NCBI RefSeq assembly: GCF_032854445.1
Contig: NC_088304.1
Span: 5,520,001 to 5,584,000 of the forward strand
Direction: 5' to 3'
Source of the DNA: Liolophura sinensis
Lineage: Eukaryota; Mollusca; Polyplacophora; Chitonida; Chitonidae
Length of the DNA stretch: 64,000 bases
Part shown: one piece after another, positions 10,701 to 13,700 of the stretch
Position numbering within the stretch: the stretch's first letter is position 1
Layout: every line of letters begins with the position of its first letter
The notes under the pieces: model-generated
Seen by the model: the letters and a program-made list of their open reading frames with translations, nothing else
Told to the model about the DNA's origin: nothing
Database searches by the model: none
Program-made: the position numbers and the translations under genes

Positions 10701-13700
10701 ACCGGCAATCTGCCAATACACAGAAACAATTACATCTCTGCAGATGGGAACTCACAATTGTGGAGAAGCATTTTGTTTTGTCTGATCTGATCTCTCAATG
10801 TGAACCCTGAAAACCTGTAAGAGCTACTTCAGTTCCTTGTAGGCTTATATAAAGCAGATTATGGGACAAAACGGATACCCTGGTTCCATAACACAATGAT
10901 TTATATGAAATGATCTCATCTACATGTGATGATTCTTGCATCAAAGTATAATTGAGCAATTACCAATTTCAAAGCAATGTTATCTCTCTTACCTGAGCTC
11001 TCAAGTCTGATATGATAATAAATTTCTTGAGGATGTTCTTTGGCAGAATGTAGGTATATCCAGTCTCTTTGATGTCGTCAGACGATACATAAATATGATT
11101 AGTTCTCAGGTGAAGATTTGTGGCCGAAATCGCTCTCACGCGCCACTCTGTCTTGGAGGCGAACGTCTGGGTCTCGTAATTGCTGGTCGTCGAGGTGATG
11201 ATCTCGTCTCCGTGCTTATTAACAGTCCGTGTTGTTGTTGCAGTGAGCTGTGACTGTTCCTTGGTCTGTTTCTCAATCTCAGCAATCTGTTGTCTCTGTG
11301 CGGAGGGCGCGGAGATTTCCATACCCAGGATGATGTCACGGATTTCTGACTGGGTCAGAGAGGCTACATTCACGCTGTGAGAAAATTAGAGATTATTACT
11401 TCACCCTCAAGAAAATAACAACTGCAGTTGAACAATTAGTGTTTAAATGTTGTTTATTAATAATACAAAGGCTAGCAAGTTTAGCTATAATGTCCTCATT
11501 AGTCCGGAAACCAACAAAAGAAAATCTGGATTTAAGCATTACAAGTTTTGATTTGTACCAAAAATTGCATTAAGCAATAATCACAAATGTGTAAAACACT
11601 GTTCACCACTTTTTTTATTGATTTCCCCTTTATATAGAAGATTCTCCAAACATTACCCATATCGATATTTCCATACAAAACAAGTTGGAAATACCATATA
11701 TTTAATATTTTTCAAGAAAATATACACTAATTCTCTTCAGTACTTCCACTGAGCATGATCAAACCGATGGGTTGGATAATGGAATGGTTTGTCGTGGGGA
11801 GAGTACATTTGACCTTGAATTCACACAGAGCATGATCAAACCGATAGGTTGGATAATGGAATCGTTTGTTGTGGGGAGAGTACATTTGACCTTAAACTCA
11901 CTTGTTTTTCTTTCCGTAGTCTGCGAGGATCAGATCCTTGAGCCTCATTTCAACCTTCATCCACTCCTCGTCTGACAGCGACGGCCAGATGTGATGAGCC
12001 TCCGTGATCGTCGTCTTGTCAGGCTTAAGCACGACCTTCGTCCGGTCATTATTCACGTGGAGGGCTCGCAAGATTAAGATCAGGCGAGAAAATGCCTGTC
12101 CAATCAAATCAGTTTACTGCTCAAGTTTGATGTACTTACTCGCCTATAATTGTTCTCGACTGCTATACTAAGGAATTTGTTACTTAAGACGATAATGGTT
12201 AAATGGAGGAAACCCGAGTGCTTGGGGGTAAACTACAGACCTTTGGCAAGTTACTGACAAACTTTTCCCCATATCACATACACACAATATTGGTGGAGAC
12301 CAATTAGACACCAATGAATGTTAGACTACACAACTGACTGGGATAGCGGCATACTACATTACAAGTGGCTGGGAGGCCTAGTCTGAGACTGAGCCAAGTC
12401 TTGCTTCATGCTTAGGTTTAAAGGGTAACTCAGAACTCTGTATTTATACTAACTGTTCATCAGCCAGAGCATTCCTCCAGTATTACAATCATAAAATGCT
12501 GATTCAGAGCCAGCAGTACTAGGCTATATTTTCTAAGAATACTTTTCCTCCAGACCTCTTTCAGTGGACTGGTTGTTCAAAAGTGTACTGAGATTTATGG
12601 CAGATTTAAATCTTAATGCCAGTTTAGCTCTAATATAAATCCCATGGCATTTTAGACCAGTTTAAACTTATAATACATCACTGAACAACAGGCTTTTCAG
12701 CCTGCTGACAGAGTGTCGGCGTGGATACAACAACGTCAAACTACAGTCGATTCAAGAATAGCTCAAACAGTTTTTCCTAGTCAGCAGTGTTTCATACTGG
12801 AGCCTGACTTACAGTGTATGAGGAGATGGTTTTCAGCCAATCATCGTACAGGCTGAATACAGATTACAAAATGGCACCCTTCCAGCAACAGTGTTCCTAG
12901 AGCCTGACTTACAGTGTATGAGGAGATGGTTTTCAGCCAATCGTCGTACAGGCTGAGCACAGAGTATTCAAATACAGATTACAAAATGGCACCCTTCCAG
13001 CACCAGTGTTACTAGAGCCTGACTTACAGTGTATGAGGAGATGGTTTTCAGCCAATCATCATATAGGCTGAATACAGATTACAAAATGGCACCCTTCCAG
13101 CACCAGTGTTACTAGAGCCTGACTTACAGTGTATGAAGAGATGGTTTTCAGCCAATCATCGTACAGGTTGAACAGGACCATCTGAGGTTCTGTGGCCTTC
13201 AGGATCAGGTCTCCGAACTTCTCCACCTACAACAACAACAAAAGGATTAGCCATATCATACATACTTTTCACTATAATATTTCCATGAATTCAACCATTA
13301 CCATTTATTTACTTTTGCTGTATATCCACTACTATGGCTAACCTCAAATTTCATGATTATCTTCAACCTTTAATAACACATTATTCATTGTGTACAAACA
13401 GTTATACCTTACTTAAGCAATATTATATTAAGCATTACAAATTATCAAATTTTATTGATTTACCTGATATATATATAATAATATTCAACTGAATTAGAAA
13501 ATATGACACTTTCACCTGCCTTAAATATTATACAAACCAACAGGGTATCCCAATCTAGACTAAATTTATTTATTTATTTATTTGATTGGTGTTTTACGTC
13601 GTACTCAAGATTATTTCACTTATATGATGGCAGCCAGCATTATGGTGGGAGGAAACCGGGCAGAGCCCGGCAGAAACCCACGACCATCCACAGGTTGCTG

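What the first reader, a model, noticed from the sequence alone, without database searches (positions are those of the whole stretch)
12801..13226. Exon 37 splice-donor bank: three intronic copies of the last 40 exonic bases plus GTAAGT in PRPF8
Seen: the 3' end of exon 37 and its donor are tandemly copied three times downstream (exon-like parts 13028-13067, 12913-12952, 12813-12852). Each copy has an identical GTAAGTCAGG donor and an AG directly before CCTGTAC/CCTATAT, so each is a ready-made 40-nt micro-exon with mini-introns of 60-75 nt. Exon 37 ends in phase 0, so including a micro-exon gives a stop within three or four codons (CCT GTA CGA TGA or CCT ATA TGA). Differences from the true exon are synonymous in the [13 protein letters not shown] frame. 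Inference: decoy donors or poison micro-exons could tune PRPF8 output according to spliceosome activity, as poison exons do for other splicing factors. A neutral recent duplication is the simpler alternative.
Basis: partly seen in the sequence, partly recalled or inferred. Interest (0 to 1): 0.82.

Follow-up and report, generated by a model that had tools for sequence, protein, structure and literature searches.

The report
Splice-site-spanning minisatellite in chiton PRPF8
A short tandem repeat has copied the end of one PRPF8 exon and its splice signal three times into the next intron; similar copies sit at several other splice sites sampled in this chiton genome, so it is most likely a tolerated by-product of repeat growth and not a special switch for PRPF8.

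Summary
In detail: on the minus strand, the last 40 nt of a PRPF8 exon plus an identical donor recur three times downstream. One detail is wrong: copy E2 lacks the early stop described. The 13 alternative splice products modelled, and intron retention, all end prematurely.

Assembly figures identify the genome as the chiton Liolophura japonica. There, 9 of 165 sampled myosin and kinesin donors also carry firm donor-spanning tandem copies, against 1-2 of 165 acceptors. In 9 arrays measured (PRPF8 included), 56 of 56 copies lie downstream of the donor taken as true. Array starts are no rarer at donors than in nearby intron (few events).

This matches the "mirage" minisatellites of lancelets, where published RT-PCR suggests splicing is undisturbed. 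Best reading: a mirage-type minisatellite, nearly neutral, with the first donor used.

The decoy or poison-exon bank is not supported: the structure is not specific to splicing factors, low divergence explains the intact donors, and the all-synonymous pattern does not recur in three other mirages. It is not excluded: this intron has the weakest acceptor scored in the gene, two decoy acceptors are respectable, and no RNA data were available.

The parts
13128..13226 (-).
13118..13127 (-). True donor GTAAGTCAGG
13068..13127 (-). I0, 60-nt mini-intron-like segment (GTAAGT...TTCAG)
13028..13067 (-). Copy E1 (37/40 identical to E0), acceptor-like CAG upstream, donor at 13027
12953..13027 (-). I1, 75 nt; identical to I0 over 57 nt, with 15 extra nt before CAG
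12913..12952 (-). Copy E2 (38/40), weak acceptor, donor at 12912; no early stop
12853..12912 (-). I2, 60 nt; 2 differences from I0
12813..12852 (-). Copy E3 (39/40), donor at 12812
12788..12812 (-). Start of I3: last partial unit, similar to the other units for about 20-25 nt, then ordinary intron
12795..13172 (-). Whole tandem array (period 100, 3.6 copies, 85% matches)
11902..12095 (-). Next PRPF8 exon (AFSRLILIL...), whose acceptor is the weakest of 36 scored

Best explanation
It is a 'mirage': a minisatellite whose unit spans an exon-intron boundary. Inferred origin: about 50-60 nt (exon end plus start of intron) was duplicated around a roughly 40-nt filler, as in staggered-break repair, and the unit then expanded into the intron like any minisatellite. 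Shown: three downstream copies with intact donors, and the same architecture at several other donors in this genome. Inferred: the spliceosome pairs the upstream acceptor with the first donor met, so the extra donors and micro-exon look-alikes are mostly ignored, any mis-spliced product carries a premature stop and is removed by NMD, and the array drifts nearly neutrally.
For: Other donor-spanning arrays in the same genome: 5 firm plus 1 weaker of 54 myosin donors (the 54 are distinct) and 4 firm arrays of 111 kinesin donors, curated by reading the exon ends. In 9 arrays measured, PRPF8 included, 0 of 56 copies lie upstream of the donor taken as true (upstream search limited to 200 nt; the true donor was set by reading the exon; the K2/K7 array, whose true end is unresolved, was not measured). 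Array starts lie within 60 nt upstream of donors about as densely as in adjacent intron (4 in 90 sites, 8.6e-4 per nt, PRPF8 being one of the 4, against 6.9e-4, 6.1e-4 and 3.0e-4), so no purging is seen at donors. Tandem repeats cover 19.7% of the window plus 20 myosin loci. In PRPF8, 2 of 16 arrays touch a donor against 4.2 expected at random, and 0 touch an acceptor against 4.2. A 28-mer of the filler matched 3 places in the genome at up to 3 mismatches, all in the array. Lancelet mirages have the same anatomy, and the authors say Adh3 data and globin RT-PCR suggest regular splicing (PMC3087553, passages).
Against: All four exon-copy differences are synonymous (P = 0.0087 for position, or 0.031 for the three private to copies), which free drift does not predict. 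The acceptor of this intron is the weakest of 36 scored, while E1 and E3 acceptors beat 16 of 36 and are matched by only 28 of 1802 intronic AGs; the donor is matched by 56 of 2022 intronic GTs: a decoy model would want exactly that. Mirages were described in lancelets, not molluscs. No transcript data were seen. The array-start comparison rests on 4 events, one of them this array.
Confidence: 0.85

Rival explanations
1. Regulatory decoy bank: the extra donors and micro-exons bind U1/U2 without productive splicing, or are spliced in as poison exons, lowering PRPF8 output when spliceosome activity is high, as proposed for SF3B1 and OGT decoy exons.
For: Donors identical to the true one; E1 and E3 acceptors beat 16 of 36 real ones; next-exon acceptor weakest of 36 scored. 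The 13 alternative splice products modelled, and intron retention, all have a premature stop. Core splicing factor SF3B1 is proposed to be regulated this way (PMC6117862 passages; OGT in PMC12017769 passages).
Against: Same architecture at motor-protein donors. Copies too young for intact donors to mean anything. Mini-introns 60-75 nt against a shortest measured inter-exon distance of 152 nt in PRPF8. Decoy exons are reported mostly in longer retained introns; this intron is 1,032 nt (donor and acceptor). One of the three acceptors is poor.
Confidence: 0.06
2. Incipient exon or intron gain: the array is a snapshot of new introns and micro-exons being born, with DSB-repair direct repeats around a filler that supplies an acceptor.
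For: Direct repeats around filler of unknown origin, at splice sites, match the Daphnia/Drosophila signature discussed in PMC2809761 (passages); the lancelet globin authors propose mirages as a route to intron gain (passages).
Against: No in-frame product exists at present: none of the 13 alternative splice products modelled keeps the PRPF8 frame. The event sits inside an existing intron, so no new intron is needed to keep the protein.
Confidence: 0.07
3. Assembly artefact: false tandem copies.
For: Repeats can be mis-assembled; the same assembly holds a mitochondrial concatemer on one scaffold.
Against: The array (378 nt) is far shorter than the HiFi reads (mean 8,347 bp; PMC11068029 passages). 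Copies differ from each other by private changes. Similar arrays exist at unrelated genes.
Confidence: 0.02

Closest known systems
Mirage minisatellites of amphioxus (Adh3, globins BflGb6/BflGb9, troponin C; PGBD5 repeats likened to them)
   Same: Tandem duplication of an exon-intron boundary, units of 10-160 bp, copies often keep AG/GT signals, arrays at 5' or 3' boundaries, end units escape homogenisation (passages)
   Different: Found here in a chiton (Mollusca); in this sample donors are hit more often than acceptors; splicing and length polymorphism not measured
Decoy or poison exons of splicing-factor genes (SF3B1; OGT intron 4)
   Same: Non-productive exon-like units with both splice sites inside an intron, premature stop if included
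   Different: No evidence of use, conservation or regulation; units derive from the adjacent exon; similar arrays occur in motor-protein genes of this genome
Intron gain at DSB-repair direct repeats or by tandem duplication (Daphnia and Drosophila from passages; potato RdRp seen only as a listing)
   Same: Direct repeats at splice sites around filler of unknown origin
   Different: Happened at the edge of an existing intron; no new intron has demonstrably been gained

Membership tests
Mirage minisatellite (structural definition) | Tandem repeat unit spans an exon-intron boundary | tested here: met
   Each of the 3 copies holds 40 nt of exon plus at least 17 nt of intron
Mirage minisatellite (structural definition) | Copies keep splice signals in many units | tested here: met
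   Donor 10-mer identical in 3 of 3 copies; CAG before 3 of 3
Mirage minisatellite (structural definition) | Recurs at several genes of the genome | tested here: met
   9 of 165 sampled myosin and kinesin donors, firm cases
Mirage minisatellite (structural definition) | Cluster ends excluded from homogenisation | tested here: met
   E0 differs from all 3 copies at site 31; last unit's intron tail not significantly similar to the others
Mirage minisatellite (structural definition) | Regular splicing not disturbed | not testable with these tools
   No RNA data
Mirage minisatellite (structural definition) | Length polymorphism or somatic instability | not testable with these tools
   One assembly; a single locus found
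Mirage minisatellite (structural definition) | Reported distribution: lancelets (not treated as part of the definition) | tested here: not met
   The genome is a chiton: contig count, longest contig and N50 length equal those of L. japonica; mitochondrial gene order, genes named by eye, fits a chiton-type mollusc (comparison recalled)
Poison or decoy exon | Inclusion introduces a premature stop | tested here: met
   7 of 7 modelled micro-exon inclusions
Poison or decoy exon | Competent splice sites on both sides | tested here: inconclusive
   Donor stronger than 10 of 36; acceptors stronger than 16, 4 and 16 of 36
Poison or decoy exon | Conserved across species | not testable with these tools
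   No other animal genome held
Poison or decoy exon | Used, and responsive to the protein's own level | not testable with these tools
   No RNA data
DSB-repair intron gain | Direct repeats around filler of unknown origin at a splice site | tested here: met
   Filler 28-mer matched only in the array (3 of 3 matches); unit tail not significantly similar to I3
DSB-repair intron gain | A new intron spliced out, absent in relatives | not testable with these tools
   No RNA, no relatives

The most novel reading that the evidence does not exclude
Donor-spanning 'mirage' minisatellites are a pervasive class in a chiton, outside the lancelets where they were described, at roughly 5% of sampled donors and hence possibly thousands genome-wide. 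They lay out arrays of often full-strength decoy donors downstream of real ones, so this species' splicing must obey a robust 'first donor wins' rule, and some arrays (PRPF8's among them) may be drawn into making new micro-exons or regulating output.
Probability: 0.45. Interest if true: 0.6.

Novelty: new member of a known kind. Interest (0 to 1): 0.4.

Why it matters
As a PRPF8 regulator it would be striking, but the evidence points to an ordinary member of a repeat class. The class itself is worth attention: it offers natural cis-competition experiments with tandem 5' splice sites in one genome, which can test how the first donor is chosen and whether boundary duplications seed new exons and introns. 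The library searches made here showed boundary mirages only in two lancelet papers (passages); of their other listings I opened one, the molluscan Conus paper, whose passages mention only microsatellites in introns. Most subscription papers are not held, so this does not show that molluscan cases are unpublished.

Tried and rejected
Selection on the exon copies: all 4 differences are third-position, but three other mirages with exonic copies show 12 of 34, so a general coding signature is not supported. Old divergence between I3 and the other unit introns, which would have implied that the exon copies are conserved: not supported, as the I1/I3 tail similarity is reached by 82 of 2000 shuffles and 110 of 2178 window segments (I0/I3: 337 of 2000 and 432 of 2178). 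Paralogous or transposed source of the filler: none found at up to 3 mismatches of 28; the whole-locus DNA search gave 1 place (it skips very common words). In-frame alternative isoforms: none among 13 splice alternatives modelled; exon skipping to E2 was not modelled. Lancelet origin of the genome: the GFP family search gave 0 matches, but nothing rang in the controls either; settled.

Rows dropped before the firm counts. Myosin: 60 of 81 rows were held and tested; 6 donors and 5 acceptors fell below the site-score limit. Kinesin: of 132 rows, 5 longer than 330 nt were left out on purpose and 1 (C6:59112099-59112329) was left out by oversight; 126 were entered, 5 of them not held in full, and 10 donors and 11 acceptors were dropped as low-scoring or duplicate. 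Of the 6 myosin and 8 kinesin donor hits, M2 (short exonic part) and K1 (one copy, 17/20) are weak, K3 and K5 have untrustworthy exon ends, and K2 and K7 are one array counted once, though both stay in the denominator; its true exon end is unresolved and it has copies on both sides of the picked donor. Of the 2 myosin and 3 kinesin acceptor hits, C2:5378501 is firm and C9:4628084 a candidate; C8:682171 (exon not convincing), the single copy at C1:26643291 and the K7 acceptor (same array as K2) were not counted. A third family search (UCH, 58 matches) was not sampled.

Full report
WHAT IS THERE. On the minus strand a PRPF8 exon (13226-13128, 33 codons) is identical to Prp8 over 33 residues in the two PDB alignments shown; the table places the match at residues 1899-1931 of the chain labelled hPrp8. 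Its last 40 nt and donor recur three times downstream: E1 13067-13028, E2 12952-12913, E3 12852-12813. Identity to E0 is 37, 38 and 39 of 40, and each is followed by GTAAGTCAGG. The spacers are 60, 75 and 60 nt and end in CAG. TRF reports 12795-13172, period 100, 3.6 copies. The search of the assembly with this region found one place, the window itself.

WHAT THE COPIES COULD DO. Scored against sites of this gene (36 donors, 36 acceptors; the exon list is incomplete and sites were picked by a simple scan), the shared donor beats 10 of 36. The copy acceptors beat 16, 4 and 16 of 36. The acceptor of the next exon is the weakest of 36. Among other intronic dinucleotides, 56 of 2022 GTs score as high as the donor, and 28, 279 and 28 of 1802 AGs as high as the three acceptors. 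So two of the three micro-exons have respectable sites, a point in favour of the decoy idea. Thirteen alternative splice products were modelled (7 micro-exon inclusions, 3 alternative donors, 1 mixed form, 2 with the exon skipped), plus intron retention. All 14 hit a premature stop; the regular junction is open. The mini-introns are shorter than any of 36 inter-exon distances measured in the gene (shortest 152 nt, median 589; some of these distances skip unlisted exons).

HISTORY OF THE ARRAY. I0 and I1 are identical over 57 nt and I2 differs from I0 at 2 sites. After about 20-25 nt, I3 is not significantly similar to the others: the I1/I3 score is reached by 82 of 2000 shuffles and 110 of 2178 window segments. 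A 28-mer of the unit's filler matched 3 places in the genome at up to 3 mismatches, all in the array. I infer one duplication of exon end plus intron start around a short filler, then expansion of the unit. The first three units differ pairwise by about 4% (12 of 294 compared positions, my count, indel left out), so about 0.6 changes are expected in the three 10-nt donor copies; finding none is unremarkable. The four exon-copy differences are all third-position transitions (P = 0.0087 for position), which is suggestive, but in three other arrays with exonic copies only 12 of 34 changes are (P = 0.46).

WHICH GENOME. G000 has 632 contigs and 609,464,459 bases; C1 is 96,433,062 nt and C9 37,343,639 nt. 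The published Liolophura japonica assembly has 632 scaffolds, 609,495,693 bases, longest 96,433,062 and N50 37,343,639 (PMC11068029, passages). The mitochondrial gene order (COX1, other genes named by eye) is that of chitons such as Katharina (comparison recalled). The word 'tandem' does not occur in the paper's main text.

HOW COMMON IT IS. Myosin-head exons of the same genome (60 of 81 matches, those held in 20 fetched loci) gave 54 testable donors, all distinct. Six have boundary-spanning copies (a 20-mer with 12 exonic and 8 intronic nt, at least 17 identities, within 1.5 kb); of 55 acceptors 2 do. Kinesin exons (126 of 132 matches entered, 121 held) gave 8 of 111 donors and 3 of 110 acceptors. 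PRPF8 gave 1 of 36 donors and 0 of 37 acceptors. Reading the exon ends leaves 5 firm and 1 weaker myosin donors, and 4 firm kinesin arrays; K1 is weak, K3 and K5 are untrustworthy, and K2 and K7 are one array whose true exon end is unresolved. Firm donors are thus 9 of 165 without PRPF8; acceptors are 1 firm plus 1 candidate of 165. The donor excess has P = 0.020 against 1 and 0.061 against 2. The sample is two motor-protein families chosen by profile score, so the rate is rough. Kinesin flanks were about 330 nt, so larger offsets were missed there.

WHAT THAT SAYS ABOUT FUNCTION. In 9 arrays measured (PRPF8 and 8 others; K2/K7 not measured) there are 56 copies, all downstream of the donor I took as true from the exon reading, with the upstream search limited to 200 nt. 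All 56 keep GT (similarity to the true site was required, so this is biased), and 24 of 56 score within 1 bit of the true donor or better. Array starts are about as dense in the last 60 nt before donors as just inside introns (4 events in 90 PRPF8 and myosin sites, this array being one), while array ends are sparser at acceptors (1 event just inside the exon) than at 40-150 nt upstream (7). In PRPF8, tandem arrays touch donors no more often than random placement predicts (2 against 4.2). Donor copies therefore look tolerated, which fits use of the first donor. That rule is inferred, not shown.

COMPARISON. [quoted passage not shown] Units are 10-160 bp, AG/GT signals are kept in many units, cluster ends escape homogenisation, and Adh3 data and globin RT-PCR are said to suggest regular splicing (PMC3087553 and PMC3902484, passages). 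The original Adh paper is not held. The DSB-repair signature of intron gain, direct repeats around filler at splice sites, is also met (PMC2809761, passages). Searches for PRPF8 with poison exon (12 papers listed) and for core spliceosome autoregulation with PRPF8 (2 listed) showed no paper whose title or shown abstract describes such a PRPF8 exon; I did not open those papers.

VERDICT. A real, tidy array; a new member of a known kind, in a phylum where the searches made here show no earlier case. Regulation of PRPF8 is possible but unsupported.

Noticed in passing
window 11747-11901 (minus strand, intron after the next PRPF8 exon): A 77-nt unit present twice begins right at the donor (CAA|GTGAGT); the copy's donor-like site is weak (TGT|GTGAAT, -0.76 against 9.22). 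It shares no evident exonic part.
   Followed up: partly
L005, acceptor of the exon at G000:C2:5378501: An acceptor-spanning array: a 31-32-nt unit with TTTGTAG|GTTTGAGCG, 42 copies found within the 1.5 kb upstream of a myosin exon.
   Followed up: partly
L012 (G000:C3:25740887) and L037/L121 (G000:C11:27412983, 27414708): Arrays whose unit holds a large part of an exon: a 124-nt unit x5 with over 100 nt of myosin open frame, and a 67-73-nt unit with about 50 nt of kinesin coding sequence and an acceptor-like AG.
   Followed up: partly
G000:C99: Seven COX1 matches spaced about 15.5 kb on one scaffold, beside a separate 15,209-nt mitochondrial contig: a mitochondrial concatemer, probably an assembly product.
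   Followed up: no
window 23719-23838, 24357-24470, 31331-31459, 32351-32641, 34587-34715 (minus): A dispersed element whose open frame reads like ...[18 protein letters not shown]... recurs at five places in PRPF8 introns; probably a short transposable element.
   Followed up: no
window 26276-27965, 33642-34241, 40142-41162, 58712-59681: Large minisatellites (50-, 27-, 51- and 14-36-nt units); tandem repeats of period 10 or more cover 14% of the window.
   Followed up: no
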